Shown: piece after piece, positions 41,111 through 57,550 of the stretch | Position numbering within the stretch: the stretch's first letter is position 1 | Layout of the letters: each line of letters begins with the position of its first letter | Assembly: GCA_036924285.1 (NCBI GenBank) | Contig: JAYKYS010000011.1 | Coordinates: forward strand, 3,410,001-3,474,000 | Direction of reading: 5' to 3' | Source of the DNA: Asterella californica | Lineage: Eukaryota > Streptophyta > Marchantiopsida > Marchantiales > Aytoniaceae | DNA length: 64,000 bases | The notes under the pieces: generated by a model | What the model was told of the DNA's origin: nothing | Seen by the model: only the letters and a program-made list of their open reading frames with translations | The model's database searches: none | Position numbers and translations under genes: made by a program

Positions 41111-43221
41111 TTTTTTTAAAGAACCAGACGGCGCCGGAAGACGTTTATGAACCGAGGAGAGCAAGAGGCATCCACCTCTCTCCCCCCGTGACTCAGCCCA
41201 ATAAGTTGTTTGGAACAAGTGTTAACAGGCCTGGCGGTCTTTTCTCTCGCGGTGTACTTTCTGCTCGACTCTTTTCTATCCTGTCTAACATTCTCATCCT
41301 TACTATCGCGTCCATGGTTAACGATGATACTATCGATGTTCTGATTCCTAATCCTGTTCCTGCTGCCATCTCTGCTCGCCACATGTCTGTTGCCACCTTG
41401 ATCGTTCTTCCTGAAGCCGCCTTTTCTCTCGTCCATTTGTCTTCTGACGGTTTGGTTTCGCTTCGCGGTACCCTCCTCCTTCTTGTCCTCAATCTTGCGG
41501 GAGTCCGTAGCAGTGAAATTGGCTTGATCGCTGTTGGGACTTCTGCTTCGCTTGCACTGATCGTGCCAATCCTCGACCATCTCCTGTTCTCTATCGTGAC
41601 AGGTATCGCTGGTTTTTTGCTCAGTCCTTGTCATCGCATTGATATGCATTTGACAATGGAGTTGTCCGAATTGAGTGCCTTTCCCAATTGGCAGCATTCT
41701 TCATTGTTTTCCTCTTGGAGATCCTTCTCAGTTCGCCTGTGTACCTTTAATCATCATCGTTGTTAGCACGTTGTTGTGCGTTTTCCTGGACAATCGCTCT
41801 ACTGATCTGTTGGCTGGTGGCATTGGTGCCCTCCTGTTGCAGGTCGCTCTCGTTGCGGTGTCTGATTCTCATCGACTCTTCTCTTCTCGTTTGTCTGTGC
41901 TCCGTCGGCCGTCTGTTTTTCAGCTGTTGCTGGAAGTAGGGCACTTTGCTTCTATTGCGTAGATTGTTCAGTTCCTGCATGGTTTGCTCCTCGATCTTCT
42001 TCCTTTTCGCGTCTTGGTCACTTCTTTTGGTAAGTGCTCTGACCTTCCTCTCAATGTTAGCAATGGTGACTAGCATCAGTATGTCCCTCTCTTTCTCTTT
42101 GAACAATTTGTCATTACGTTCAATCCAAATCTGCGTTAGAATTTCCATCATACCATTCTGCTTTATTGTATTCATTCTTCTGTTTGCTTCATCGATGGCT
42201 TCCAGTAGAGTTCCAGACCGTGTGGTGCCCTGTCGTGTCTCTTGCGTTATCTTGAACCATTGTTGCCATTTCCTCTGAGCTTTGTGACATTTCCAGAAGC
42301 AGTGTAGGAAGGATTCTTCTTCGCTGTTGCATCGTGGACATACTCCACTCCCTTTTTGCATTCTCGTCATTCTCTGTCCTGTCGGGAATCCTTGTTGCAT
42401 GATCTTCCATAACCACGTTTTGTCTCTCGTGAGGATACGCGCGGTCCTGACTCTCCTCCACCTCTTCCTCCATACTTTTGCCGAGTCTTCTCTATTCCAC
42501 TTTTTGTTGAATCTGCTGTGGTGCGTGTCTTCATTTTCCAGCATTTGTCTCCAATCTTGTGTATTTACGTCCCATCCCTCTGCTTTCTTGTTTTGCTTTA
42601 CTCTCCAGTTCCACCCTTCCACCTCTTATAAAGGTTTGTGTATGTCCTCAGCTTGAGTCGTTTGAATCCATTCTCTAACCTTCCTTTCTACTTCTGATTC
42701 GTCTTCTCCTAATCCCCTGTTCCGGTTATACCAGAGTTTGAAGAGGACTATCGAGGGCTCCTTACTCTCCTTGGCTAGTTTCCTGATCTTACTAACCACT
42801 TCCTGATCGATCCTCCCTGCGGTCTCATCCAGTAGCGTGCCTTGCAACACCGTGGTGTTTCTCCCGTATACTCTTCCAATCACCTCTTGATGTAGCTTTT
42901 CCCTGAGTTCGCACCATAGGTTGCGAAATGTGTTATACATTCCTGCTCTGACGACTTTCGGAGGAGTGGACAGTAGCCATATCTCTTGGACCGACCAGTT
43001 GGTTCTCTCCTTCCTCCATCTCCCTCGTTGCACGTTGTCTTATGTCAATTTTTCCGCTATTTGGATCCAGTCTTAGTCTTCTCCTCTTATGAACCGCGCG
43101 CAGTGCTTGGCCTTAAATACTTTTTGCTGTACTTCAAAGGCGATGAGCCCTACGTCACCTTCTCGTCTTTTCCTTTTGAATTCGTTCCATGCTATCATTG
43201 GCACTTTACGTTGGCCATCTC
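41111..43221 (-). pseudogene. LINE (non-LTR retrotransposon), 3' part of ORF2
   Basis: This is the downstream half of the LINE interrupted at 43221/53911. Read on the minus strand from 43221 it continues the RT protein with RDGQRKVPMIAWNEFKR and EGDVGLIAF. Next come frames at 42626-43033 and 41747-42622 carrying a zf-RVT-type knuckle (CPRCNSEEESFLHCFWKC) and a Lys/Arg/Glu-rich tail, then a poly-A tract at the target-site duplication. Stops and shifts (for example after FIRRED) show it is inactive. Confidence 0.8.
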
Positions 43222-43515
43222 TGTCACGTCAGTTTGGGCACCTCGTCTAGGTTGACCGAGTGCGAAGTGGCGCATCCCGGTAAGGCCGTTAGTGCCGTTA
43301 GGACGAGTTGGGAGGAGAGTCCACTAGGGGTAAACTACGCAGGTAGGGCTTGGAGGCCTTAGTTCTTTGAGTTGAGCCTTCAAGCTCCAGGCTATGGTGG
43401 ATAGTCTAGTTGAGTGTAACCCGGATTCTCTTCGTGTTTAGAGTGGGTTTGGCTTGACCGTTTGTGAATAATCCTTGTTGTGGTGTTGGAGATGGTAATT
43501 TCTCTATTCAGATTA
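43222..43515 (+). repeat. Left LTR copy (lacks its first 108 bp)
   Basis: Starts TGTCACGTCAGTTTGGGC directly at the target duplication and ends ctctattca + gatta. It matches 53510-53803 over 294 bases. Compared with the right LTR it lacks the leading block present at 53400-53507, so it is truncated or permuted. The bases after gatta (ctcaaagaactgag) should hold the primer-binding site, but no tRNA match could be assigned. Confidence 0.85.
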
Positions 43516-45239
43516 CTCAAAGAACTGAGTGCAGGTCGAGATGGAGTTCAGTAGGAACCCGCTGATCTGAAATCGTCCGCTGGTATCTTCGGGCGTTGTC
43601 GTTCGTGCTTGATTGTTGGAGTTGTGATCGAGGTGTGTGGGCGCATGCTACGTTGCTGGTCGCAGATCGATTTGCTGTTGTTGGGGTCGAGTGGAGATTT
43701 CTGTCATGCGGAAGCGCTGCAGAAATTTTGCGGAATGTTCTTGAAGTGTGTTGTTGGAGCCGGATTGCGCGTTTGGGCGTGGCAGACGGAATACTTGTCA
43801 ATGTCAGGCCGGAGTGGGCTCTTTGGAAGCGCATTGGAGAGACGATTCTAGCGCATTAAGTCTCGTGGAGTTTGGTCAAGGATTGAAGAAGTTATGGCAT
43901 GTCGAAGTTCGCTGCCGTGTCACCCGGAAGCACAAAAAGGCTAGTTACGTCAGATTTTGGCTCAATTTCGTGTGGAAACTCGAGTTTAGGAGTTGTTTTG
44001 TGTGTGTGTGCATTCGCGAAGTGTGTGTGGTGCATTTGCGAATCTGTTGTGGTGGTTTTCAGGTTGGCTTTGGGTGTTCTTGCTGTTTTACGTCAGATTT
44101 TGGGTCACCCGTGTGCACCCGCAAGCTGTTTTCGCTGTTTTGGAGCCTCTTTTGGTGCAATCTTCTGCAATTCGAGGTGGAGCCGAGCCTCTTCTGGTGT
44201 GTTGTATCTGTTCGACTCTACTTCAAGCGGAGCGGAGCGGAGAGTGCGTGTTAGGAGGCGTTTAGAGACTTCGAGGAGCAGAGGTGCGTGAGTGCGGAGG
44301 CGTGAGAGCGGAGTGCGAGAGTGCGGAGGCGGAGCGGAGCTGAGCCTGAGCCCGAGCCCGCACCCGCCGCAAGCTTGCTTGCTGGCGTGCGTGAGAGAGG
44401 TATCCAAGCTTCAGTTGTGTGGGAAGGGTAAAACCAACTGGTCACCCATCCCAACACTATTCCTGGACCTGGACTCCTGACTCTGTAGTCTTAGCTTTGG
44501 CTTTACCACTAGACCAATAGCTCTTGGTGTCCTACAGGGATGCGTGCAAATACTTATGGACTTGTATAAGGTAGTAGGAGACCTTCTCGCACGTCCCTAG
44601 AGGAGTGGTAGGACGACCTCACAGTATTAGGAGGAAGCTATAGTTGTGGTAGTGTTTGCCTACACCGTAGAGGCGCGTATGGAGGCAATTGGTGGTAGTT
44701 GTCTTGGGTGAGCTAGTAGAGCTACCACGTGGATGTTTTTGGAGCTACTAGAGGTGTAGACATCTAGTTAGTGACCTCAAGTGTCAGTTACGACAGTTGG
44801 TGATCATATATTGTGCATGTGATCACCGACGAGGAGACGTCAGTCCGGGTGGGGCTGGGTTTCTCTTTATGTGAATGTTTGAGTGTGGAGGGTTATCGTT
44901 TGGACTTCTTGTGGTTGGAACCCCTCCATATTATGCTTCCTGTTTGTGCGCCGCGTTTGCTTGTGTTGGCGCTTGATTTCGGAGTGAGTTCACTCCAGTG
45001 TGCTGTCGGTAGTGAGGCTGGAGTTGCGGACCAGTCAGACTATCTTCGTCTCTCTCACGATGCGGTTGGAGTGACGACCAACAGACCGTGAGAGGCTGCT
45101 TGTGGTGATGGCAGGTACAGGTTGCCCTTACCTTGACCGTCCTAGTAGGAGATAGGTGAGCTCAGTAGGAGCGGGGTTAGACAAGTGGTGGTTACGGTGG
45201 TGACGGGGATTGCGACATTCCAGTTGGGGAGTGTGTTAG
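43516..45239 (+). other. Long 5' leader of the Ty3-type element
   Basis: About 1.7 kb between the left LTR and gag. It includes a GC-rich tract of degenerate gcggagcg repeats (44226-44345) and a tRNA/5S-like fragment on the minus strand (44440-44522). Several overlapping short open frames have no domain. A leader this long is unusual and may have been lengthened by insertion of other sequence. Confidence 0.5.
44440..44522 (-). repeat. tRNA/5S-like fragment, candidate SINE piece
   Basis: On the minus strand tggtctagtggtaa (44503-44516) fits a pol III A box (tRNA D-arm). Further on, gggatgggtgacc (44440-44452) is identical to the 5S rRNA-like string seen in many plant sequences. No B box and no foldable tRNA is present, so this is not a tRNA gene. 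It may be a captured SINE fragment. Confidence 0.3.
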
Positions 45240-45866
45240 CGAGATTCTCTCATCACGGAGTTCTCGGGAGGTTCTGGTGAGGACTTCTCGGATAGTGGGT
45301 ATACACGGAGTGGGGTGAGGTACCGACTACCTACACCATTGCCGTCGGTTGTTCCAGAGGACGAGTCAGACGCAGACATCACGTTTTCTGGTGGTGAGTC
45401 TAGTGTCGCCACACCGTTGTTGTGGGACATGGACGAGATCTATAGGACCACGAAGGGACCTCGGCGTTACTCGAGTACAGTTGGTACCATTGAGCTGGAT
45501 GACTTCATCCATGAGTTCGACAGTTGGTGCGATCTGCAGCAGATGCGAAACCTACAGTTGTTTACACCCTTCATGGCGTGGAAGGGTTTGTTCCAGCACT
45601 TGGAAGGACCGCCGATGGACGATTATCATGAGTTCAGGCGAGATTACAGTGTTGAGATCGAGTTGTGGAGACAACATTGGTCTCCCAACTACGTTTCTAT
45701 CACTACTGGCACAGTTTCGGGAGGCGTAACACCTGCGAGTTCGGGTGCCAATAGCAGTGATACAGCCGCAGGTGGCGGAGTACCTACTATCAGCGGTGCG
45801 TCCACAAGTAGTGGAGCAGGTGGTAGTGTGAGTGGGATACCACCAGGGTTTAACCCTGTTGTTTAG
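45240..45866 (+). pseudogene. Gag, N-terminal part (ends at in-frame TAG)
   Basis: The frame is open from the stop at 45237 to TAG 45864-45866; the first ATG is at 45429. It encodes an acidic N-terminus, a helical block with DFIHEFDSWCDLQQMRNLQL and WRQHWSPNY, and a Ser/Gly/Thr-rich linker. The downstream gag continues in the same frame with CLRKNYQGVRTDKLRSLQEF and LREAFTRMRRLI, typical of Retrotrans_gag. The TAG lies inside gag, is followed by TTC TTC (not a readthrough context), and is best read as a CAG codon mutated to TAG. Confidence 0.65.
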
Positions 45867-48800
45867 TTCTTCCAATGTTTGAGGAAGAACTATCAGGGTG
45901 TGCGGACCGACAAGTTGAGGAGTCTGCAAGAGTTCCAGCGGAAGACTGGAGAGAGCCTACGCGAGGCGTTTACTCGCATGAGGCGGTTGATCAGCGTTAT
46001 CCAAGGGGTGACGGAAGCACAGGCAGTCCAGTTCTGGTATGGGATACTAGACCGGGAGCTGCGTAGGAGAGTTGGAGATGCTACTCTCCTTAGAGATACC
46101 GCTCCGACGTTGGCGGTTGTCTTTAGTCTGGCTGAGCGGATTGAGCTCAACATGGTGGAGGAGAGGGTGGTGGTTGCTGGGTTCAGCAAGGAGACACCAC
46201 ATGGAGCGACCACCTCTTCTCGACGATCACAGGCTACGCAACAGGGTGGTGGTGGTGGTGGTAAGGATCGTGCGGAGCAATCACGATCTCAGGGAGGTGT
46301 TGGAGGATCTAGTGGGCAGAAGCCCATGCCGTCCTTCTCTAGTCATCAGCAAGCAGGTCCTTGCTGGACGTGTGATGGTCCTCATCAGCAGAGGGACTGT
46401 CCACAGAAGAGAGGTTATGAGACGTCAGGGACGTCTCAAGCAATACCTAGGCAATGTGAGCATTGCGGACGACCTGGTCACAGTAGTGACCGTTGTTTTG
46501 ATCTCCATCCCGAGTTGCGGCAAGGGAAGGCTGATCGTGGACGAGGCGGAGGAGCTCAGGGAGGCCGTGGTGGTCGAGCTGGAGGTAGAGGTCCAGCACC
46601 TGGGAGAGGACCGGTCGGTCCACCACCTACTACGACGTCAAAAGCAGGTATGGCTGCTCGGATTGAGCAGTTGGAGCAGAGGATAGCTAGTATGGCTATG
46701 GCTCAGCGGAGATCAGGTGGAACAGAGGCTTCCACGTCTTATGGAGGAGAAGGAGGTGACTTCGACTTCATGGCTGGTGTGGCGCAGATTGAGGCATCTG
46801 CGGCAGTGACTAGAGGTGCAGTACGTGCCTCTGAGCCACGAGGTGCAGTACGTGCCTCTGAGCCACGAGGTGCGTCAGTGGAGTTGGATCCACAACGCGG
46901 GGAGGCTGGTAGACAAGCCAGGCTTCCCCAGTCGTTCACATTATCGGAGGCGTTGAGGACCACATCTATGGTTCCTAAACGACCTATCGATGGTGCAGTA
47001 GAGTTTGAGGTATCGACATCCAGGAGTGTGTGTGACGTGAGTCCACCTTCGACGTCTATGGATGCGACGTCGAACTCGATGTTGGGGACAGCTACCAGTG
47101 GTACTTGGCAAGCGGCGGCTGCTAAGTTAGATGAGTTACAAGCTAGGCCGACGATTGACCGTGCTGGTTTGGCACCAGGTGTGGTGTTGTTGGACAACAG
47201 AAGTGGTATCTTCTGTTTGGTGGCACCTTCAGGGAAAGTGTATCGACCCCAGAAGGTCTTGTTAGACTCTGGAGCCCAACCGTTGATGTTGGGAAAGGCG
47301 GCGTGTATTGGTTTGGGTCTGAAGAAATCCGAGATAGAGAGATGTCCATTCCAGTTGCAGACATCTCTAGGGGGATCAGGAGGTACGGCTCTACATATGA
47401 CACGTGAGATGTTGATGGTGAGAGTTCGGCCAGATCTCCCCACGGATGGCTCTGTGGTGAGAGCCAAGGCCATCGTTACAGCCGCAGAGTCTTATGATGT
47501 ATTGGTGGGAGGTGCTGTGTTGTACCCTATGGGGTTTGTGATCGACTATTGGGCGGAGACAGCATCTTACAGATCAGGTTGGCAGTCCGGTGAGGGACGA
47601 GTGAGCCGCTTACCAGTGCGGTTCAGTGCTAGAGTTGGGACGACGGAGCCTACACTATGGACGATGGCATCCGTTGCAGGGTTCAGTTCGGTCATCACTT
47701 GGCCGGGCGAGTTGTTGGAGGGCAATGCCCATGCGGAGGATACTCCGGTCTTTGAGGAGGTGGAGGACATGCCTAGCATGTCTACGTTAGTACCATCTGC
47801 CTTGGATGTTCCACTCTGGAGTTCGAGTGGAGAGTTGCAGCAGTATGCTGATCAGTTGGTGCAGCAGGCTTGGAGTGAAGCCTTTGTACCACCAGTAGAG
47901 GAACAAATGGTTGTTCCTGCTACTGGCCCTGTGACCTTATCACCATTGGATACAACTCCCATTGTATGGCAATATCCAGAGGAGGGTGTGTGTGTGCTGG
48001 AGCTGTTTGGAGAGATCAGCACAGGTTTGGTTGCGGTATTGCAGGCAGGCATACAAGTACAGCGATACTTGTATGTGGAGAGAGATGAGATTGCGAGACG
48101 CATCTCATTGCGACATGTGGTACGTTTGGTGCAGAGATATCTTGAGTTGTTGCCCTTATCAGCTGTTAGAGGATACCAGCAAGCATTACCGTCAGATATT
48201 TCGCTGCTGGGGGCGCATGATCTTACGTTTGTTGGCACCATTCACTTCGTGATAGCCGGATGGCCATGTCAAGATCACACACGTGCTGAGAGAGGTCAGG
48301 GTTTACATGACCCGCGATCTAGGATGTTTTGGGAGATGTTACAGATCTTACGACATCTCCAGATGCATCAGGTGGATTCTCCAGCGTACATCTTGGAGAA
48401 CGTTTCTTTGTTGGGTGATGCTCGTACACAGATGATGACGAGTGTGCACCAAGTGCGGTCTTGGACTGGACCAGCAGTGTTGTTGGATGCAGCGAGAGTA
48501 GGATCTCGTGCACATCGTCCACGGTTGTGGTGGACGAACTTGTTACCGAGAGAGGTGCTTAAGCGCGCACACGATGGAGTGAGACGACCAGCGCATCTCA
48601 CGGTTGATAGCATCTTGGATGCAGGACGACGATCTCAAGTAGTGAGAGTCGTCGATAGGTCACCCATGGCAGTGGTGAACCTAGTGGGACGGCCCATGGT
48701 AGCGTTACCCACTTTGGTAAGCTTTCCAGCGTCACATGCTTACAGAGATGGAGGACCTGGGCTTGTGTGGGATGCTCAATTACGGCAGTTGGTGGAGTCC

Positions 48801-49187
48801 AATGCCGATGAGAGAGAGCGAGCGATGGGTTTCCCTACGGGTACGACGACTGTAGCTTCGGTGTCGGAGGCTTCACGTCGTCAAGTATTGGATCAAGCAA
48901 TGGACTTGAATTGCTTGACATGGATTGTTAACCTTGGATTGGTTGAGCAGCGTCGGATGCGATCGACGGGTGTTACTGCTCGAGCACTCTTGAGCTCTTT
49001 GCCTACCGGGTCGGTGGAGGCAAAGGCTGGGGGCGAGGCACGTGGAGTTCGTCATCCTTGGACATCATGGGATGTCATAGGAGAGAGTGTGGAGCTTGCA
49101 GCTAGAACTGCAGAATTTTTACGCATAGTAGCGGTGGAGGTTGTTGGTGGTGAGCAGAATGAAACTGCTCCAGAGGCTACAAGATAG
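45867..49187 (+). CDS. Gag (C-terminal part)-protease-cytosine methyltransferase polyprotein
   Basis: Open in one frame for about 1,105 codons. Numbering from the codon at 45879: capsid-like gag 1-95; CX2CX3HX4C (about 163-175) and canonical CX2CX4HX4C (CEHCGRPGHSSDRC, 46455-46496) knuckles; an Arg-Gly-rich stretch (about 221-245); a 30 bp tandem duplication (46815-46874); retropepsin with LLDSGAQPLMLG (Asp codon 47265) and ESYDVLVGGAVLYPMGF; a linker; then a C5-methyltransferase (about 702-1022). It ends at TAG 49185-49187, after which RT follows in the same frame. The expected role is virus-like-particle formation, polyprotein cleavage and DNA methylation. Apart from the TAG at 45864 upstream, the frame is unbroken, which suggests recent selection on the methyltransferase. 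Confidence 0.88.
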   Translation, partial: FFQCLRKNYQGVRTDKLRSLQEFQRKTGESLREAFTRMRRLISVIQGVTEAQAVQFWYGILDRELRRRVGDATLLRDTAPTLAVVFSLAERIELNMVEERVVVAGFSKETPHGATTSSRRSQATQQGGGGGGKDRAEQSRSQGGVGGSSGQKPMPSFSSHQQAGPCWTCDGPHQQRDCPQKRGYETSGTSQAIPRQCEHCGRPGHSSDRCFDLHPELRQGKADRGRGGGAQGGRGGRAGGRGPAPGRGPVGPPPTTTSKAGMAARIEQLEQRIASMAMAQRRSGGTEASTSYGGEGGDFDFMAGVAQIEASAAVTRGAVRASEPRGAVRASEPRGASVELDPQRGEAGRQARLPQSFTLSEALRTTSMVPKRPIDGAVEFEVSTSRSVCDVSPPSTSMDATSNSMLGTATSGTWQAAAAKLDELQARPTIDRAGLAPGVVLLDNRSGIFCLVAPSGKVYRPQKVLLDSGAQPLMLGKAACIGLGLKKSEIERCPFQLQTSLGGSGGTALHMTREMLMVRVRPDLPTDGSVVRAKAIVTAAESYDVLVGGAVLYPMGFVIDYWAETASYRSGWQSGEGRVSRLPVRFSARVGTTEPTLWTMASVAGFSSVITWPGELLEGNAHAEDTPVFEEVEDMPSMSTLVPSALDVPLWSSSGELQQYADQLVQQAWSEAFVPPVEEQMVVPATGPVTLSPLDTTPIVWQYPEEGVCVLELFGEISTGLVAVLQAGIQVQRYLYVERDEIARRISLRHVVRLVQRYLELLPLSAVRGYQQALPSDISLLGAHDLTFVGTIHFVIAGWPCQDHTRAERGQGLHDPRSRMFWEMLQILRHLQMHQVDSPAYILENVSLLGDARTQMMTSVHQVRSWTGPAVLLDAARVGSRAHRPRLWWTNLLPREVLKRAHDGVRRPAHLTVDSILDAGRRSQVVRVVDRSPMAVVNLVGRPMVALPTLVSFPASHAYRDGGPGLVWDAQLRQLVESNADERERAMGFPTGTTTVASVSEASRRQVLDQAMDLNCLTWIVNLGLVEQRRMRSTGVTARALLSSLPTGSVEAKAGGEARGVRHPWTSWDVIGESVELAARTAEFLRIVAVEVVGGEQNETAPEATR
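47985..48945 (+). other. DNMT3-like C5-cytosine methyltransferase domain
   Basis: Motifs occur in the normal (non-permuted) order. Motif I is VLELFGEISTGL (47994-48029), with RYLYVERDE as motif II. Motif IV is IAGWPCQDHT with the catalytic Cys codon at 48267. Motif VI is ENV (48396-48404). Motif VIII is AHRPRLWWTN (from 48510). The motif IX/X region contains ERAMGFPTGTT (about 48815-48845) and ends LTWIVNLGL. The motif I and VIII wording resembles DNMT3 ('LF.GI.TGL', 'AHRARYFWGN') more than DNMT1/CMT; the order excludes plant DRM enzymes. All catalytic residues I can check are present, so activity on CG or other sites is plausible but unproven. Confidence 0.88.
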
Positions 49188-49193
49188 CAGTCA
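49185..49193 (+). promoter_or_regulatory. Candidate stop-codon readthrough site (UAG CAG UCA)
   Basis: TAG ends the gag-protease-methyltransferase frame and is followed by CAG TCA. The same frame then runs into RT. UAG-CAR-YYA is the known leaky context of tobamovirus-type readthrough (established knowledge). Here CAG = CAR and UCA = YYA. This would give a minor fraction of gag-pol fusion, as gammaretroviruses achieve by UAG suppression. Confidence 0.6.
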
Positions 49194-51050
49194 ACGACTT
49201 CGTCTTCTACCTCTAGCATGGTGACAGAGGATACTTGGGAGCCGGAGATTGGATCCAAGCTTATAGGAGAGGAGAGACGAAGAGTCCAAAGATTCCTGAA
49301 GAGCTATAGGAATTGTTTTGCCTTCAGTATGAAGGATTTGGGTACCTTGAAGGGACCTGGTATACGGATCGACTTGGCTAATGACACGTCAATCTTTCGA
49401 CGTCCTTACAAGTACAGTGACATGGAGAGAGCCTTGATCCAGAGTCGGACTCAAGACTTGTTGGAGGCTGGATTGGTGGAGATGTCACATGGAGAGTATG
49501 CATCTGCCACAGTTATGCCAGCCAAGAAGGATATGTATGGCAACTACACGGATAGGCGGATGTGTGGAGACTACCGTCTTATCAATCGGCAGACGAAGTC
49601 CGGTAAGTATGTCATGCCGACACCTGAGGAGATCTTTGATGCAGTGGGGCATGTGAAGGTCTTCAGTACTTTGGATCTTCGAGCAGGGTATCATCAGTTG
49701 CCAGTGAGAGAAGAAGATAAGTCCAAGACAGCATTCTGGGGAATTGACTCTCACGGCAAAGATTGTTTGTATCAGTGGCGGTTCTTACCATTTGGGTTGA
49801 AGAACGCCCATGATGAGTTCCAAAGGGTGATGGACAGAATCCTAGCAGGATTGGATTTTGTCAGATGTTATATTGACGACATCTTAGTCTATAGTGCTAC
49901 AGTGGAGGAGCACGAGAGACACTTACGGGATGTGTTTGAGCGGTTGAGAGCTCATGGGTTGAAATTACACCCTGGGAAGTGTAAGTTCTTCCAGGAGTTG
50001 GTAGAGTATCTGGGCCACACCATCTATCCAGGTGGATTGGGTGTTCAACAGATGAAGGTTGAGGCTATTGCACGTATCTCACGTCCCACAGATGTGAGTC
50101 GAGTTCGAGCATTTGTTGGTTTGGCGAACTTCTATCGTCGATACGTGAAAGGGTTTAGTGCAATTGCGAAGCCGTTGACCAAGCTGATGAAGGTGGACCA
50201 AGAGTGGCAGTGGAGAGATGAGCAGGAGCGAGCTTTTGTAGAGCTCAAGGATAGGTTGACATCTGCTCCCATCTTGAGGAGACCCGTTAGGGGGCGTCCT
50301 TTCCAACTACACACCGATTGGAGTATGTTGGGACTTGGAGCAGTGCTGACTCAACATGATGATGAGAAAAAGGAGTTCGTGGTGGCGTATGCCAGTCGCT
50401 CCAACAATTCAGCGGAGGCGAGGTATAGTTCGTATGAGGGAGAGTGTTTGGCGGCAGTGTGGACTGTTGCACACTTTCGATGTTATCTGTTTGGGAACCC
50501 CTTTACTCTCATCACTGATCACCAGCCGCTCAAGTGGTTGATGGAGTCCGACAAGCTTACAGGAAAACTTGCACGATGGGCTCTGATCTTACAGGAGTAT
50601 GACTTCCAGGTAGTACATAGACCTGGAGTTGCAAACCTAGATGCCGATGGGTTGAGTCGCAACCCGTGCACGAGTCAGCAGGATCAGACTGGGGCTCGAT
50701 GGCATGACGAGGTTGATGAGGAGATAGTGCCAGGGTGGCATGCATCTGCCTTTCTTTGTGTGTTGGTCATGAACTCTAGTATGGAGGGCCAAGTTGTATC
50801 TTTCTCTGGTCAGAGAGTAGATGATGAGTCTCCAGATCCTGAGGGTGGAGATGATGTTTCAGACCAGCGAGATATCCATGATGATGTGACCGTGATGGAG
50901 TATCTACGTACTGGTGTGGTAGTAGGCACAATAAATGCCAAGGAGCGAGATCGTGTCCTTCAACGAGCGAAGAGATTTCGACGAGAAGGACGACATGTAC
51001 TTCGAGTGTGGGGTGATGGGAGGATACGGATAGTGTCACATCCATCCTAG
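49188..51050 (+). CDS. Reverse transcriptase-RNase H of the Ty3-type element
   Basis: Continues in the frame of the preceding polyprotein (first ATG at 49218) and is open for about 620 codons. The RT domain carries CGDYRLINRQT, STLDLRAGYHQLPV, the catalytic box YIDDIL (codons at 49869-49886), a KCKFF..LVEYLGH block and FVGLANFYRRYVKGFS. RNase H of the Ty3 type follows: HTDWSMLGLGAVL, SYEGECLAAVW and LITDHQPLKWL supply the D, E and D residues, ending VHRPGVANLDADGLSR. It ends with a linker (VMEYLRTGVVVGTI...RIVSHPS) at TAG 51048-51050, beyond which the integrase zinc-binding motif continues in frame; that TAG interrupts pol. RT copies element RNA into DNA inside the particle. Confidence 0.9.
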   Translation, partial: QSTTSSSTSSMVTEDTWEPEIGSKLIGEERRRVQRFLKSYRNCFAFSMKDLGTLKGPGIRIDLANDTSIFRRPYKYSDMERALIQSRTQDLLEAGLVEMSHGEYASATVMPAKKDMYGNYTDRRMCGDYRLINRQTKSGKYVMPTPEEIFDAVGHVKVFSTLDLRAGYHQLPVREEDKSKTAFWGIDSHGKDCLYQWRFLPFGLKNAHDEFQRVMDRILAGLDFVRCYIDDILVYSATVEEHERHLRDVFERLRAHGLKLHPGKCKFFQELVEYLGHTIYPGGLGVQQMKVEAIARISRPTDVSRVRAFVGLANFYRRYVKGFSAIAKPLTKLMKVDQEWQWRDEQERAFVELKDRLTSAPILRRPVRGRPFQLHTDWSMLGLGAVLTQHDDEKKEFVVAYASRSNNSAEARYSSYEGECLAAVWTVAHFRCYLFGNPFTLITDHQPLKWLMESDKLTGKLARWALILQEYDFQVVHRPGVANLDADGLSRNPCTSQQDQTGARWHDEVDEEIVPGWHASAFLCVLVMNSSMEGQVVSFSGQRVDDESPDPEGGDDVSDQRDIHDDVTVMEYLRTGVVVGTINAKERDRVLQRAKRFRREGRHVLRVWGDGRIRIVSHPS

Positions 51051-51201
51051 AGGACACAGTTAGTGCGACATGCCCATGAGGAGTTGGGACATTTTGGAGT
51101 GAAGCGTACGCATAGCTTACTCCAAGGACAGTATTGGTGGCGTGGTATGCACGTCGATGTGCAACAGTTTGTCGCACGATGTGTGGTTTGTGATCGAGTA
51201 C
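51051..51201 (+). pseudogene. Integrase N-terminal HHCC domain, interrupted
   Basis: In frame after TAG 51048-51050: RHAHEELGHFG gives the His-His pair and CVVCD the Cys-Cys pair of the integrase zinc finger, with QYWWRGMHVDV between them. The reading frame is cut at 51201 by the solo LTR and resumes at 52117 in the same frame. Confidence 0.85.
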
Positions 51202-52112
51202 TGTAACGACCTATGTTACACATAGGAAGTTTGTCTATTAGTAAGGTGTTTAGTTATAACTAAGTGTTGAGAATGTTTATTGGCTGCCAAAGTACTTTAA
51301 GGATGTATCAAGTTAGTCATGACTAGCTAAAAGTTAGTTATGGTTAAACTTAGCTGTACTTTTGGCAGAATTCAGATATTTGCTAAAGAGTGAGCACTAC
51401 TATCTTGTCATCTTGTCTAAAAGGTAGAAAGGAGGTGGAAAGTATCCCTTATCTCCTTTTTGACTTGATATTAGTGGTTGGATTAAAGTTGTGGACTTTG
51501 TGGGCATTAAAAACAAGAAGAGATTCCACATGTTTCCTTTTTAGTGGGTCCTAGTGTAGAGGGGGGATGGAAATTCGAGATTCCTTGAGAATATTTCAGA
51601 ATCCTTCTAGAAGTTGTTGACTTTGAAGGAATAAGCCATGTGAAAAGGTAAAAAGCCCATGTGATCAATGCTTTTACCTTAAGTAATATCTTAGTAAAAC
51701 CCGATAAAAGTAGTTACGGCTGAGTTACCGGGGGTACCAAAGTAAAAACCTAGAATGTATAAATAGAGGAGTAGAGAAGAGCTCCTCTTCCTTGTTTTCA
51801 CATTGTCGTAATGACAACTTGAGTAATATAGAGAGTGTGGGATATTTTTAGCATGTGAGAACTTGAGAGACGTCGTTAGAATGGAGGATTTTAGTTGATG
51901 TGTTTAAGGAGATTTTAGTTGATAAGTTTGTGGGTGTATGAATGAGTGAACTCAGCATTTTCTCTTCAAGTTCATGGTGTGCTTCCATCAAAGCCATCAG
52001 AGGTGACCCCTGAGTGAGAGACAGGCCCGACATGTTGCAGATTCGTGGATGACGATCGTGGAGGTTGAGAGATCGGGGGGTAGTTGATCGATAGGACCGC
52101 GGAGGGTTTACA
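51202..52112 (+). mobile_element. Solo LTR of another family inside the integrase
   Basis: 911 bases, TGTAACGACC... to ...GAGGGTTTACA, flanked by GTAC (51198-51201 and 52113-52116; AGTAC if the LTR ends in TTTAC). A TATA box TATAAATA lies at 51758-51765. It is homologous throughout to 19489-20375. LTR plus one target copy is 915 bp, a multiple of three, so the host frame resumes unchanged, although the LTR itself contains stops. A solo LTR arises by recombination between the LTRs of a full element. Confidence 0.92.
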
Positions 52113-52116
52113 GTAC

Positions 52117-52733
52117 GAGCATCGTTTAATGCTCATACTCCACAGTTACACCCCTTATCGATTATGGGGTTGGGTTACCGTTGGAGTTTGGATTTTGCGG
52201 GACCCTTACCGTTGACCGTACGTCACCACCGGTATGTGTTGGTGATGATGGAGCACTTCTCCAAGTGGATTGAGTTGGTGGCATTACCAGACAAGGCGAG
52301 TGAAGGGACGGCGTACGCGTTCTTAGATCGAGTATTGAGTCGTTTTGGAGCACCAGTTGAAGTGCTGACAGACCAAGGTACAGAGTTCCTTGGTGAGTTT
52401 CAGGCCTTGTGTGATCAGGCGCTGATTGATCATCGGACTACATCTCGAGATCATCCTGAGGCGGATGGTTTGGCGGAGAGGGTAGTTCAGACGGTGAAGA
52501 GAGGATTGCGCAAGTATGGCTTGCAGAAGGGCCACTTGGGAGACTGGGATGTGCAGTTATCATGGTTGGCTATGGGTTACCGTTTCAGCCGACAAGCTTC
52601 TTTGGCTTCCTTCTCACCGTATTTTCTATTGTATGGCCGAGATCCAGATCTATCTTCGGCCATTCGTCGTGATTCTGCTGAGGTGCTGGACCTTGATGAC
52701 CCGGATATGTGGGTGAGAGCATGTTCTCAATGA
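52117..52733 (+). pseudogene. Integrase catalytic core of the Ty3-type element
   Basis: The DDE core is intact: SLDFAGPLP (first Asp, about 52188), VLTDQGTEFLGEF (second Asp, about 52370) and DHPEADGLAERVVQTVKRGL (Glu, about 52458), with the usual about 35-residue D-E spacing. It ends at TGA 52731-52733, after which the same frame continues (AEIFRRVMPMAFE). The TGA is best explained as a CGA codon that lost its methylated CpG. Integrase would join element DNA to the genome; this copy is disabled by the LTR and the stop. Confidence 0.88.
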
Positions 52734-53228
52734 GCAGAGATATTTCGGAGAGTTATGCCTATGGCTTTTGAGAACCTAGCGATTGCTCAGCATAGAGACA
52801 CGTTGCGATATACGACTATCCGAGGAGGAGGTTATCGGCCGTCGATTTGCAGGTTTCATCCTGGCGATTATATCTATCTACAGCAGACTGCACCGACGAC
52901 GTTGGATGTGACCGTAGGGCGCACTATTTTACGAGTGCGTGAGGTGTTACCTTCTGGAGTACTCATGTTAGAGGGCCGTGATGGTGTTGTTTGGAAGGAC
53001 CATGTGCGTAATTGCGCGCCATGTCATCTTCCCAACATTAAAGATACCGTCGACCCAAGCTTAGCAGTTGTACGTGCGGGCTTGAAGTGTATGTTGTGTG
53101 GGTCTGCTGGTGGAGCAGCCCGTATGTTAGTGTGTGATGGTTGTTCGAGAGGTTGGCACATGTCATGTTTGACTCCACCTCTCAGTGTCATTCCTACTGG
53201 ACGGTGGGTTTGTCCTCGATGTATATAG
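52734..53228 (+). pseudogene. Integrase C-terminal domain with PHD finger
   Basis: In frame with the core. It has a small beta-barrel-like stretch of the kind that follows Ty3 integrase (FHPGDYIYLQQTAPTT, RTILRVREVLPSGVLML, then RNCAPCHLPN). A PHD finger follows at 53088-53222 with the C4HC3 pattern: CMLC, LVCDGC, GWHMSCLTPPL, WVCPRC. The frame ends TAG 53226-53228. Chromoviruses carry a chromodomain here; a PHD finger is a different histone-tail reader (many bind H3K4 states) and could steer integration (inference). The finger itself is complete. Confidence 0.85.
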
Positions 53229-53401
53229 CGGAGATAGTCGATTAGATCTTTGCGTGGTATGGATTGCAGACAGGCGACTAACGATGAGACGATGTAGCAC
53301 CCGGCCTCCTGATCCTTGCACCCATGAAGGTGTGTATCACGTAGTTGGGATATGGAGCTATCTGGAGTTAGAGGGGCCTAACCGCCAGTTAGGGAAGCGA
53401 T
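53229..53401 (+). other. 3' untranslated region and probable polypurine tract
   Basis: Short non-coding stretch between the PHD finger and the right LTR. It ends agggaagcgat just before TGTGGTAC. The purine run at about 53391-53400 is the likely plus-strand primer and marks the true left edge of the LTR at about 53402. Confidence 0.6.
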
Positions 53402-53803
53402 TGTGGTACACTTGTGTATGTGTATGACATCGTCCATGTGTTATGTGTATGTGTGGTGTACCTCTGACAGCGATGTATGTTGTGTAGCGATGTGTATGCG
53501 CACGACAGCTGTCACGTCAGTTTGGGCACCTCGGCTAGGTTGACCGAGTGCGAAGTGGCACATCCCGGTAAGACCGTTAGTGCCGTTAGGGCGAGTTGGG
53601 AGGAGAGTCCACTAAGGGTAAACTTCGCAGGTAGGGCTTGGAGGCCTTAGTTCTTTGAGTTGAGCCTTCAAGCTCCAGGCTATGGTGGATAGTCTAGTTG
53701 AGTGTAACCCGGATTCTCTTCGTGTTTAGAGTGGGTTTGGCTTGACCGTTTGTGAGTAATCCTTGTTGTGGTGTTGGAGATGGTAATTTCTCTATTCAGA
53801 TTA
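53402..53803 (+). repeat. Right LTR, full length (about 400 bp)
   Basis: Runs from TGTGGTACACTTG (after the polypurine tract) to CTCTATTCA plus gatta, giving TG..CA ends. Its last 294 bases (53510-53803) equal the left LTR. Inside it, at the joint of the two blocks, is CACGACA-gc-TGTCACG, which looks like an LTR-LTR junction with two extra bases. Confidence 0.7.
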
Positions 53804-53910
53804 TTGTGGTACACTTGTGTATGTGTATGACATCGTCCATGTGTTATGTGTATGTGTGGTGTACCTCTGACAGCGATGTATGTTGTGTAGCGATGTGTAT
53901 GCGCACGACA
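53803..53910 (+). repeat. Extra 108 bp copy of the LTR start
   Basis: Identical by eye to 53400-53507 (attgtggtacac... to ...gcgcacgaca). It follows the full right LTR directly and abuts the LINE target duplication TCTC at 53911. It completes a permuted arrangement with the shortened left LTR. Confidence 0.92.
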
Positions 53911-55810
53911 TCTCTGTTAGTTCCTCATATGAACTTTCGGCACATAGCTTCCATTGCTTCTATCGTAGGTTTTCTGAAGGATGGGCGCGTCAGTATATGT
54001 GTCGATATTGAACGTACTACATGTTTAGCCACCACTATCTTCCCAGCCATCGAGAGCATCCGGTAAGTCCAGTGCCTCAACTTCCTTCCCATCTTTTCAA
54101 GAATATATTGAGTTTGTTCTACTTCTGTGACCTGCCAACCTATTGGGTAGCCCAAATATCTAACTATCTCCTTCTTCTGTGCCACATGGCAGCCTGTTTG
54201 AGACATTCATTCTGGAACATTTTCCATCGCCAGTGGAATGATGGTGGATTTTGCAACGTTCAGCTTGGCTCCGGATATCATTTCATATTATCCTATTACT
54301 TTCTGGAGATTGCAAAGTTTCTCATAGTTCCTTCTAGGCTTATCCCTGTGTCGTCTGCAAACAGTTGGTGCAGCAGTGTCCTGTCTCTTTTTGGAGTTAA
54401 GGGGATTCCTTTTAGTTCTCCTCTTCTCTCAGCTTCATCCAGCATGCACATGAGCGGCTGTGTAGCTAGGGCGAACAGGAGAGGGACCAGGAGACATCCT
54501 TGTCTTACCCCCCTCTGCAAGTCTATGTCTTCGGTGAAGAGGCCGTTCACATGTACCTTGGAAGTGATCCCCTCCACTAGCCCTTTGGTTAGCATAATAA
54601 ATCTGTCATCTATATTCATGCTTTCCATAGTTTCTCATAAGTACTTGTGACTAACACGGTCGTACGCTTTTTCAAAATCGAGCTTTACAAACATTGACGA
54701 GCACTCCTTTCTTTTGGCCCATTCTCTTCCTAAGCTGAAAGCTAAAAAATTATCTGCAATATGCTTACCTTTGATAAATCCTTTCTGTCTTCTATCCACT
54801 AGCGTATGTGTTATTTCTATGAGTCGGTTGGCTAGGAGCTTACTTATTATCTTGTACGACGTGCAGAGCATCAATAATGACCTCCAGTTCTTCATCGCTT
54901 CCAAGTCGTCTTCTTTGAGGAGTAGTTTTATTACGTCTTGTGTCATCTTCCACGTCATCCTCTTTTCCTCTCAGTACTTTCGAATTACTGCCATGAAGTC
55001 GTCTTCCATAACAGACCACATCCCTTGCACGGTTTCGTTCTTCATCTCGTCTAGTCCTGGTGTCTTTTCCTTTCCCAGATTTTCAACCACTCCTCTGACC
55101 TCCTCTGGGTGAGCATTCTGGTCAAGTATTCATTGTCTTCTCTGCTGACTTTCATCTTCACCAAAGCTAGAGCCTTCTTTCGTTGTCCCCTTGCTTGTTC
55201 TGTTTCTTTGTCTTTGGTGAACAGTCGCTTGTAGTATGTGTGGATTTCCTTCATGATATCCATTTCTTCTATCAAAGTTTCACCTTCTTAAGTATGCAGC
55301 ACCGTAATTGACTCCTTCATCCTTTTTGCCTTGGTTATTGCGAAGAAAAATTTGGATGGTGCTTCCCCATCCCTTAACCACCTTAATTTGCTTAGTCTCC
55401 TCCAGTATTCAGCTTTCTCTCGTTCTAACTCTCCTATTTCTCTCTCCATCTCCTTCATTTCCTGATCTGGTACATTGCATTTGTTCTTCGCCACCATTAT
55501 TCTTTTGCTTTCCAGTGCCTCTAGTCTCTCCATCCTCTTCTTTCTTTCTTTCCTTATCTCCATCTCTTCATTCCGCATGATCTCCTTCGTCTTCGTCCAC
55601 TTTAGTTCCCAGGCCATTCTTGGATCTTTCGTTTGACCTCCTGTTTTCCTCCACATTTCTTCGCTCTCCCTCATTGCTTTGTTGAACTTGAGAGCTTCCG
55701 CTGAAACTTTGTAGTACGTGCTCTTCTTACTCTGTTCTTGATTGCTTTGAGTCCATGTCATCAGTACAGGCAGATGATCCTATTGTTATCTGCTTCCCAT
55801 CATGTATTGT
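53911..55810 (-). pseudogene. LINE (non-LTR retrotransposon), 5' part of ORF2 with RT
   Basis: The minus strand, from 55810 down, gives the end of an endonuclease-like segment and a linker with SKLRWLRDGEAPSKFFFAIT. The RT follows: LLMLCTSYKIISKLLANRL, FIKGKHIADN, KLDFEKAYDRVSH, LQRGVRQGCLLVPLLFALA, LFADDTGISLEG (catalytic Asp-Asp) and YLGYPIGWQVTEVE. Several stops and frameshifts break it, including a TGA where FIWG is expected just before the 53910 junction. The 5' end is truncated at the target duplication, as is usual for LINEs. Confidence 0.85.
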
Positions 55811-55826
55811 TATAAAAATATAGACT
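55811..55826. repeat. LINE target-site duplication, right copy
   Basis: TATAAAAATATAGACT, identical to 41095-41110. It marks the truncated 5' end of the LINE. Confidence 0.88.
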
Positions 55827-57550
55827 AAACAAGCATAATAAATCAAAACATAGTATAACTGTTAAATTATATATCATAGTGAGAGTTCCAAAAAGAACCC
55901 ATACCTGAAATGCTTGTAAACACTTCATACACTACGTGAGCGAGAGACTAAAAATTGAAAAGAATAATTTTACCGAAGGTTTAATAAGTTAAACCCCTGC
56001 ATAATTGCCATAATTGAAGATGGAGTAATTGATATTATGCAGGGAAGTAGGAATACCTGGTATGCAAATAATGGGGCCCGCTACCGGAGCCTTCACTCAG
56101 AAAGAGCCCGTCAGAGGTTTTAATTCTTCTTCCCAACTTCCTTTCTGTCAGAATACACTACAGTAACGATGGACGCAGTAAGCAGGCGTTACAGTGTACA
56201 AGATCTTTGCAAAATTGTCTTTTTCCTTTATATATATATATTTATTTAAATTAAAGCCGGCGGTACGCGCCACAACCATATTAAAAAGAAACGGAAGTAC
56301 AAACCCAAGTAAGACGGAAAAAGCAAGGACCTCGGCTGAGTTATGATACCCAGAGCCCAGAATACTTTGTACAGCCGGTGGCGAGGCGGAAACAGAAAAC
56401 CGGCCCTAAAGACCTCGTGACCAGAAGGACAAAGTGGGTATAGGCAGATAACTCTAGCCCCTGAATCCCAAGAAGCCGGAGCAGAAGAGGAGAACGTGGG
56501 ACGGTGCGGGTTAGACTCTATGAGAGCTCATCTGCACTTGCAGTTTTAAAATTACAAATACAATTTATTTTATTTTATAGATTGTTTTGGGGTTTTATAG
56601 TCTCTCACTCGTATGTATATTCACCCCGGTGAACTCTTCTGCGTGCATTTCAATGTTGATTTATTTTTGAGATTATTTATTGAAGTAACCAATCCAGAGA
56701 CATCCTGGGAGGTTTATTACAGAATCAATTTTCAGTGACACCCCTATAAACTGTTCAGTTATATGGAATTAATTTTTTCTGTTTGAACCTAACTCTAGAG
56801 GAGAAGACGAGTTCTTTTTTGTTTTCGTGAGCTTATTTAGAAAGGATTCGAACTCAGGTTGCCAACTTCCCACGCACAGCCTGTTTGCAATGACCCATGC
56901 ACATCCTGGGAACAATTCCTACGTACAGTTGATATTACTTATAGACTTCACCGCTTCCTCAGAAAACCAGGCAGGGAACACGACTTCCCAGAAAGAAAAA
57001 GTCCAGGAAGAGAAAATCGTATGTATTCTGTATTAAGCACCACTAAACAAAGAAAACTGATCAGGTAAATCCGGTGAACAGGCACAGCCAAGCAAAGAAA
57101 GTCGAGGATTGAGTAGCCTAACGAATCCGGTTTCCTGATTTTTTCTTCCGTGTCGTCCGGTTGTCCTTTTCCTTGTTTTTCACAGAAGTGCGCTTGGGAT
57201 GTATATTCTCTCACAGTTTGTGGAGTATCAAACATTTTTGAAAAGTTATTCACACTGTGATCATAGTTTTGATTCTTCGCTGAGGTGGAGACATGTAGAG
57301 GTCCAGCAAGAACATCTTAGCACTTATTACACCCAAAATTGTACATATGAAACTCAAGCCCACTCGGCTAAAATCCCTCTCCAAAAATATTAAGTTGTAC
57401 GTTGCAACTCCAACCCTATTTGGGAAACTGAAACTATATACAATTTGTACTGCTGGTTATTAGGAACTCTGTACTGCACGCGTGAAAACTGCTGATGTGT
57501 TTGAGCTCTTAGCATCCCTAACGATTTCATTCAGCAGAGGGTGCGAAGGA
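55827..57550. other. AT-rich intergenic spacer
   Basis: No gene is supported. Overlapping short frames at 56827-57253 have no domain. A short (TA)n run lies near 56231. Confidence 0.5.

What the first reader, a model, noticed from the sequence alone, without database searches (positions are those of the whole stretch)
47985..48945. A Ty3-type retrotransposon carries its own DNMT3-like cytosine methyltransferase
Seen: motifs I, II, IV (WPCQ), VI (ENV), VIII (AHRPR) and IX/X lie in canonical order in the same open frame as gag and protease, directly before RT. Known: Ty3 pol normally has only PR-RT-RH-IN. I recall a published report of C5-methyltransferases captured by retrotransposons in dinoflagellates and charophyte algae, so the idea has precedent, but whether this family and host are covered must be checked. 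Inference: the element may methylate its own cDNA or the host to evade or exploit silencing, or to protect from CG-sensitive defences.
Basis: partly seen in the sequence, partly recalled or inferred. Interest (0 to 1): 0.93.

Follow-up and report, generated by a model that had tools for sequence, protein, structure and literature searches.

The report
Retrotransposon carrying its own DNA methyltransferase
This genome holds more than a hundred copies of a virus-like jumping gene that includes a predicted DNA-methylating enzyme, kept by purifying selection and likely used to mark the element's own DNA before insertion; such an element was described in one alga, and relatives turn up here in liverworts, peat mosses and green algae.

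Summary
Confirmed. Window 47985-48960 encodes a complete DNMT3-like C5-cytosine methyltransferase (MTase) domain (PF00145; nearest solved structures by sequence and fold are DNMT3A/B), in frame behind gag zinc knuckles and a protease motif and in front of a Ty3-type RT. It belongs to a multi-copy family, not a chimaera. The motif-IV PCQ is present in 45 of 45 ungapped copies, and the domain is under purifying selection on internal branches (omega 0.20; terminal 0.95). The window copy itself is decayed. KnitGypsy-Dnmt3 of Klebsormidium nitens (PMC5890265) is clear precedent, so this is a new variant of a known kind.

Not seen in the papers I searched: relatives in bryophytes; a PHD finger behind the integrase; a conserved TAG-CARYYA (plant leaky-stop motif) between MTase and RT, predicting MTase dosage at Gag level; one MTase clade in two gene orders.

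The ends are A-body-B-A-B with 4-bp target duplications (16 of 17). The inner B|A junction never varies (17 of 17 readable). The A|B junction varies between copies and once carries the purine tract, as LTR-LTR circle joins do. I infer that end-joined, probably circular, cDNA is recut at B|A and inserted by the DDE integrase.

What the MTase does is inferred, not tested.

The parts
43218..43221 (.). target-site duplication, left copy (TCTC)
   Evidence: matches 53911-53914; 4-bp duplications perfect in 16 of 17 copies with both flanks readable, of 21 examined
43222..43515 (+). terminal repeat A1, begins TGTCACG
   Evidence: 285 of 292 identical to A2
45315..45866 (+). gag, N-terminal part, ends at a premature in-frame TAG of this copy
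   Evidence: same frame as 45879-49187; many other copies have open frames of about 1370 aa
46362..46496 (+). two gag CCHC-type zinc knuckles
   Evidence: read from the translation
47259..47285 (+). aspartic protease active-site block (LLDSGAQPL)
   Evidence: read from the translation; no Pfam protease match, so by motif only
47985..48960 (+). DNMT3-like C5-cytosine methyltransferase domain
49185..49193 (+). TAG-CAGTCA, in-frame stop with the plant CARYYA readthrough context
   Evidence: in-frame TAG plus CAGTCA/CAATCA in 58 of 60 loci readable there and in L101; motif function from PMC2754532
49218..51050 (+). Ty3-type reverse transcriptase and RNase H, cut short by a TAG
   Evidence: PF00078, PF17917, PF17919; 4ol8_A 1.2e-71
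51204..52147 (.). foreign stretch inside pol (about 0.94 kb, TGTAAC...GTTACA ends, looks like a solo LTR), with loss of some pol sequence
   Evidence: read by comparison with L101; ends approximate
52164..52733 (+). DDE integrase core (rve)
   Evidence: PF00665 2.2e-14
53088..53222 (+). PHD finger at the C-terminus of the integrase frame
   Evidence: PF00628 8.4e-12; complete in 8 of 10 right-end pieces, the other 2 pieces without match; nearest solved PHDs
53387..53400 (+). purine-rich tract before B1 (likely plus-strand primer site)
   Evidence: AGTTAGGGGGGCGA in the 8 other copies printed in full and in 2 printed in part; role inferred
53401..53507 (+). repeat B1, ends CGACA
53508..53509 (+). 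B|A junction spacer GC inside the palindrome GACAGCTGTC
   Evidence: identical in 17 of 17 readable copies
53510..53803 (+). repeat A2
53804..53910 (+). repeat B2, element end ...CGACA
   Evidence: 106 of 106 identical to B1
53911..53914 (.). target-site duplication, right copy (TCTC)

Best explanation
This is a decayed copy of an abundant Ty3/Gypsy retrotransposon family whose first reading frame is gag-protease-DNMT3-like methyltransferase and whose second, behind a predicted leaky stop codon, is RT-RNase H-integrase-PHD finger, and the methyltransferase likely methylates the element's own cDNA before it is inserted. Shown: domain identity, domain order, the conserved TAG-CARYYA between the two frames, conservation and purifying selection of the enzyme domain, the A-body-B-A-B ends with 4-bp target duplications.
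For: Identity: AF2 pLDDT 78.8, pTM 0.81; all 50 listed Foldseek rows are DNMT3-family entries, best DNMT3A 1.9e-19. Retention: PCQ and ENV in 45 of 45 ungapped copies; two-ratio codon model, 31 stop-free copies: omega internal 0.20, terminal 0.95, 2dlnL 47.5 over one ratio, 73.8 over internal omega = 1; RT of 40 copies 0.11 and 0.67. Gag-level dosage: TAG plus CAGTCA/CAATCA in frame in 58 of 60 loci readable there and in the distant L101; CAR YYA after UAG reported essential for TMV readthrough (PMC2754532). PHD; 83 of the 91 held relatives of 1500 aa or more also match a PHD profile. DDE integration. Recut join: invariant B|A (17 of 17), variable A|B (8 of 32 readable deviate, one with a 25-nt spacer, one with the purine tract); two copies whose MTase DNA differs at 1 of 1083 sites (L024, L025) have different A|B joins. 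Copies differ by C/T at CG and CHG sites 1.6-1.7 times as often as at CHH, compatible with plant-type methylation of inserted copies.
Against: No activity, methylome or expression data for this family. The isolated MTase of the nearest described relative gave no methylation in yeast, which its authors call inconclusive (PMC5890265). In the algal architecture the MTase lies behind RT, so Gag-level dosage is not general. The selection signal is weaker than for RT. K. nitens copies carry CHG/CHH methylation like other silent elements there, so pre-marking may be superfluous. Single-ratio ML omega for all branches is 0.61, much higher than the NG86 median 0.235. 24 of 32 A|B joins have the same spacer, which a templated join would also give. 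1 of 17 target duplications is imperfect.
Confidence: 0.5

Rival explanations
1. The enzyme acts on the host genome: it methylates chromatin around insertion sites or at host silencing genes, to disturb or exploit silencing, rather than its own cDNA.
For: A PHD finger on the integrase would bring the complex to chromatin; copies show a CG/CHG transition excess. DNMT3-type enzymes act on chromatin (established knowledge).
Against: The MTase is in a different reading frame from integrase and PHD and is predicted to be made with Gag; no methylome data held here.
Confidence: 0.2
2. The enzyme's substrate is RNA, or it is kept for a non-catalytic role such as nucleic-acid binding in the particle.
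For: DNMT2-type enzymes methylate tRNA (established knowledge); the first authors raise RNA as a substrate for their LINE enzymes (PMC5890265).
Against: PCQ and ENV kept in 45 of 45 copies argues for catalysis; sequence and fold are nearest to DNMT3, with DNMT2 only at E 0.38.
Confidence: 0.15
3. A host gene fragment carried as a passenger (transduplication), without function.
For: Retrotransposons do carry host gene pieces (established knowledge); the window copy is dead.
Against: Purifying selection on internal branches; one MTase clade with 100/100 support spanning liverworts and green algae.
Confidence: 0.03
4. Assembly chimaera or a single odd insertion.
For: None found.
Against: 113 of 113 scored places align over the full domain on many contigs; of 67 distinct fetched MTase-query loci, two of them host genes, 60 hold the MTase end and the RT start together; clean 4-bp duplications.
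Confidence: 0.01
5. The A-body-B-A-B ends arise as in DIRS/PAT elements, by template-directed ring closure over the inner B1A2 stretch, not by end joining of an LTR cDNA.
For: Same repeat order as PAT elements (PMC4157794) and as KnitGypsy-Dnmt3 (PMC5890265); 24 of 32 A|B joins share one spacer.
Against: No tyrosine recombinase match in the five element frames scanned, a DDE integrase instead; 4-bp duplications; the A|B join varies, with filler and purine tract, which a templated join would not be expected to do.
Confidence: 0.25

Closest known systems
KnitGypsy-Dnmt3 of Klebsormidium nitens (de Mendoza et al. 2018, PMC5890265; sections 6, 9, 10, 11 and 15 read, passages found for others)
   Same: Gypsy element with a Dnmt3-like domain; A-coding-B-A-B repeats (its Fig. 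4c legend); catalytic residues conserved; purifying selection
SymbioDIRS-Dnmt3 and SymbioLINE-Dnmt of Symbiodinium (same paper)
   Same: Retroelement with a captured C5-MTase; two domain orders coexist in the DIRS kind
   Different: Tyrosine recombinase (DIRS) or LINE machinery, not Ty3 RT with DDE integrase
Chromoviruses (chromodomain Ty3/Gypsy; recalled, plus abstracts listed)
   Same: Ty3/Gypsy with a chromatin-reading domain behind the integrase
   Different: PHD finger instead of a chromodomain, plus an MTase
DIRS/PAT elements (split direct repeats; PMC4157794, passages read)
   Same: A1-body-B1-A2-B2 repeats; DIRS-group elements carry a putative MT domain
   Different: They encode a tyrosine recombinase; this element has a DDE integrase and 4-bp duplications
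Host DNMT3
   Same: Catalytic-domain fold and motif order
   Different: No ADD or PWWP match in the ORF; retroelement MTases form a group apart from human DNMT3A and the host's L001 gene

Membership tests
C5-cytosine DNA methyltransferase (PF00145) | profile match above curated cut-off with motifs I, IV, VI, VIII, X in order | tested here: met
   29.6 bits against cut-off 22; motifs located
DNMT3 family | catalytic domain nearest to DNMT3, unrearranged | tested here: met
DNMT3 family | N-terminal ADD/PWWP modules | tested here: not met
   only PF00145 found in the ORF; so filed as DNMT3-like, not as a DNMT3
DNMT3 family | falls inside the cellular DNMT3 clade | tested here: inconclusive
   33 retroelement MTases are one group (100/100) beside human DNMT3A plus host L001, on a stem of 1.9; only two cellular references and five viral outgroup rows
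DNMT3 family | de novo methylation activity | not testable with these tools
   -
Ty3/Gypsy (Metaviridae) | Ty3-type RT, RNase H and DDE integrase in the order RT-RH-IN | tested here: met
Ty3/Gypsy (Metaviridae) | two complete flanking LTRs | tested here: not met
   A-body-B-A-B in 17 of 19 right ends readable for it
Ty3/Gypsy (Metaviridae) | short target-site duplication | tested here: met
   4 bp, 16 of 17
DIRS/PAT | split direct repeats | tested here: met
DIRS/PAT | tyrosine recombinase; no target duplication (the latter recalled) | tested here: not met
   rve integrase; duplications
Chromovirus | chromodomain behind the integrase | tested here: not met
   PHD finger, no chromodomain match
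KnitGypsy-Dnmt3 lineage | common descent with the K. nitens element | not tested

The most novel reading that the evidence does not exclude
A Ty3/Gypsy lineage, from green algae to land plants, that writes 5mC on its own cDNA with a Gag-level DNMT3-like enzyme, reads unmethylated-H3K4 chromatin with a PHD finger on its integrase, and inserts not the linear LTR cDNA but an end-joined circle that its DDE integrase reopens at a palindrome inside the LTR. That would be the circle-junction route once proposed and rejected for retroviruses (recalled, no call), used as the normal route.
Probability: 0.35. Interest if true: 0.9.

Novelty: new variant of a known kind. Interest (0 to 1): 0.72.

Why it matters
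A retroelement whose silencing mark may be written by its own protein makes a long-standing question testable in a well-equipped model: does a transposon gain by being methylated? Relatives are annotated in Marchantia polymorpha. [quoted passage not shown] the liverwort and Sphagnum hits correct this for bryophytes. The permuted ends with an invariant B|A and a variable A|B join would be the first sign known to me of a DDE-integrase LTR element that uses end-joined DNA as its integration substrate.

Tried and rejected
Chimaera, passenger and single-copy readings were rejected. Pairwise NG86 (median omega 0.235 MTase, 0.155 RT) was replaced as main evidence by a two-ratio ML model, because kappa is about 9 and single-ratio ML gives 0.61. 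A first MTase tree of 53 rows held two very long rows (vir_L099, P0035); in it the RT-MT architecture and the viruses were each not one group. I rebuilt it with 40 rows, dropping those two and eleven further rows, and it is cleaner. Viral relatives: 12 IMG/VR loci at 22-29% identity, six used and five as outgroup. The one prokaryote hit, L101 in a cyanobacterial MAG, holds gag-PR-MTase and RT-RH-IN frames and is probably algal contamination (inference). PHD on Gypsy integrases: the one listed Gypsy paper with a PHD finger (PMC3286476) means a neighbouring host gene (passage). Host identity: not settled; protein kin point to a bryophyte-like host (inference). Exact copy number: not obtained; the pattern census did not complete. 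Insertion preference: not tested. PBS primer: not identified. Second structure job not used.
Full report
OBSERVATION. The element lies at 43222-53910. Its first long frame holds gag zinc knuckles, a protease DSG block and, at 47985-48960, a C5-cytosine methyltransferase (MTase) domain. PF00145 matches at 29.6 bits (cut-off 22); human DNMT3A is the best PDB sequence match (5.8e-10), DNMT3B follows, while DRM, HaeIII and DNMT2 are far weaker (0.044, 0.05, 0.38). An AF2 model on 34 sequences (pLDDT 78.8, pTM 0.81) finds DNMT3A first in Foldseek (1.9e-19) and DNMT3-family entries in all 50 listed rows. Motif names are recalled from the literature.

STATE OF THIS COPY. It is decayed: in-frame TAG at 45864, TAG at 51048, a foreign stretch at about 51204-52147, TGA at 52731, and departures from most copies at one residue in each of two MTase motifs. 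A1 and A2 are 285 of 292 identical. It is inserted in an older LINE on the opposite strand: RT-like pieces (motifs recalled) lie on one side of the empty site and a weak zf-RVT match, below its cut-off, on the other.

COPIES. The assembly is 516.7 Mb. The MTase query gave 4393 first-look candidates; the best 113 were scored and all align over residues 1-361, 93-95% identical except the window itself. PF00145 gave 1250 candidates and 123 scored places, at least two of them host genes. So 113 is a lower bound, and the candidate numbers are loose. I fetched MTase regions of 60 places, chosen by rank and by open frame, besides the eight loci (L001-L008); L009 duplicates L004, so 67 distinct loci, two of them host DNMT genes. 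45 copies aligned without gaps over the whole domain; PCQ and ENV are in 45 of 45, and 31 have no stop. Choosing by score and open frame favours younger copies.

SELECTION. A codon model with separate ratios for internal and terminal branches gives MTase omega 0.20 internal and 0.95 terminal (31 copies; 2dlnL 47.5 against one ratio, 73.8 against internal omega 1). RT (159 codons, 40 copies) gives 0.11 and 0.67. Topology and relative branch lengths were taken from IQ-TREE and only scaled; copies with stops were left out. This is the pattern of a domain needed while elements are active and neutral after insertion. A single ratio gives 0.61 and 0.45. Pairwise differences in the MTase DNA are C/T at 4.9% of CG, 5.3% of CHG and 3.1% of CHH sites, against 0.8% transversions (46 sequences), compatible with CG/CHG methylation of inserted copies; no methylome was available.

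TWO FRAMES AND A LEAKY STOP. Between MTase and RT there is an in-frame TAG followed by CAGTCA or CAATCA in 58 of 60 loci in which both the MTase end and the RT start could be read; the other two are frameshifted there. L101, 46% identical in the MTase, has TAG CAATCA. CAR YYA 3' of UAG is reported as essential for TMV readthrough (PMC2754532, passage). I infer that Gag-PR-MTase is the main product and RT-RH-IN-PHD the readthrough product, so that the MTase would be a Gag-level particle component.

PHD FINGER. Pfam PHD 8.4e-12. It is complete and followed directly by a stop in 8 of the 10 right-end pieces; the other two gave no match. The nearest solved PHDs include CHD4, MLL3, PHF12, DPF2/3, KDM5A/B, BHC80 (PHF21A), ATXR5, BAZ2, AIRE and UHRF1; that most of these read H3 unmodified at R2/K4 is recalled, so the predicted ligand is an inference. 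The search for Gypsy, PHD finger, integrase, retrotransposon and LTR found five papers (listing); in the one on mosquito Gypsy elements the PHD finger is a neighbouring host gene; the other four were not opened.

DISTRIBUTION. Three protein searches: 35, 157 (120 listed) and 233 (120 listed) hits. Of 269 proteins held, 91 are 1500 aa or longer and match the MTase profile; 90 match RT, 88 IN, 83 PHD, and 82 have all four in the order RT-MT-IN-PHD (the PHD profile was built from seven stretches, six of them from these hits). Of 34 proteins with bryophyte names, 8 have MT before RT, none RT before MT, 1 has MT-IN-PHD and 25 show the MTase alone. In a tree of 40 rows the 33 retroelement MTases are one group (100/100) apart from human DNMT3A and the host gene L001, and the RT-MT-IN-PHD rows split from the rest at 100/99 (in the 53-row tree they did not form one group, with two very long rows among the 53). 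RT gives the same split at 100/99 with Ty3 as the only outgroup. I read this as one old capture followed by a move of the domain within the polyprotein. Only two cellular DNMT3s and no MTase-free sister Gypsy were sampled, so several captures are not excluded. The 2018 paper concludes an acquisition in the K. nitens lineage; its element was not at hand to be placed.

ENDS. The repeats are A-body-B-A-B, seen in 17 of 19 right ends readable for it; L020 is A-body-B, and one piece shows A2 and B2 but not B1, probably because it starts too late. Of 21 copies examined 17 show both flanks, and 16 have a perfect 4-bp duplication bounded by TGTC...GACA; L014 has 3 of 4. Of 39 right ends, 17 show the inner B|A junction, all GACAGCTGTC; 32 show A|B: 24 with the common spacer (one of them with a change beside it), 3 AATT, 2 TATT, 1 GATT, one with a 25-nt spacer, one holding the purine tract; 7 were not readable. 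L024 and L025, whose MTase DNA differs at 1 of 1083 sites, have different A|B joins. A purine tract precedes B1 and the body starts right after A1, so ordinary reverse transcription would make [BA]-body-[BA]. The inserted form is its circular permutation cut at B|A. Variable joins with small indels are the mark of end-joined LTR circles (PMC9324142, passages). I infer end joining in each cycle, probably into a circle (a linear concatemer is not excluded), and cutting by the DDE integrase at B|A. L020 with its duplication CCTC fits a one-LTR circle, or later B1/B2 recombination. The 2018 paper notes the same repeat order in K. nitens; I saw no explanation of it in the sections read (Fig. 4c legend). 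My searches on split direct repeats with Gypsy and integrase listed no title or abstract that describes this (one paper's passages).

LITERATURE CHECK. Ten searches of an open-access library. The 2018 paper is the precedent. PMC12344493 repeats it (passages). PMC6338049 mentions DAM- and DCM-type methylases in Gypsy/DIRS elements of, among others, green algae and charophytes and their absence from land plants such as tracheophytes (passages). In these listings and in the passages opened I found no report of liverwort or moss MTase-Gypsy elements; most listed papers were not opened, and subscription papers and Repbase entries were not searched.

VERDICT. It is a new variant of a known kind: known in one alga, here in bryophytes and further algae, with a PHD reader, a leaky-stop motif, one MTase clade in two gene orders, and ends that point to a recut end-joined cDNA. 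The role of the enzyme is inferred.

Noticed in passing
43222-53910 and 38 further right ends (loci between L074 and L141): A-body-B-A-B ends with 4-bp duplications, invariant B|A and variable A|B joins: signs of an integration substrate made by end joining of LTR cDNA, with a DDE integrase.
   Followed up: yes
49185-49193: Conserved in-frame TAG-CARYYA between MTase and RT frames, the TMV-type leaky stop context, also in L101.
   Followed up: partly
53088-53222: PHD finger behind the integrase, also in 83 of 91 held relatives of 1500 aa or more.
   Followed up: partly
L101:1-6218: A contig filed under a cyanobacterial MAG in GTDB encodes gag-PR-MTase and RT-RH-IN; likely algal contamination of the MAG.
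   Followed up: partly
51204-52147: Foreign stretch with TGTAAC...GTTACA ends inside pol, probably a solo LTR of another element.
   Followed up: no
41747-43217 and 53911-56000, minus strand: Pieces of a decayed LINE on both sides: the element is nested in it.
   Followed up: partly
L001, L002: Two host DNMT genes: an intron-split DNMT3-like gene and a gene with the rearranged motif order of DRM.
   Followed up: partly
8412-10076: 554-aa frame without Pfam match at E 0.01.
   Followed up: no
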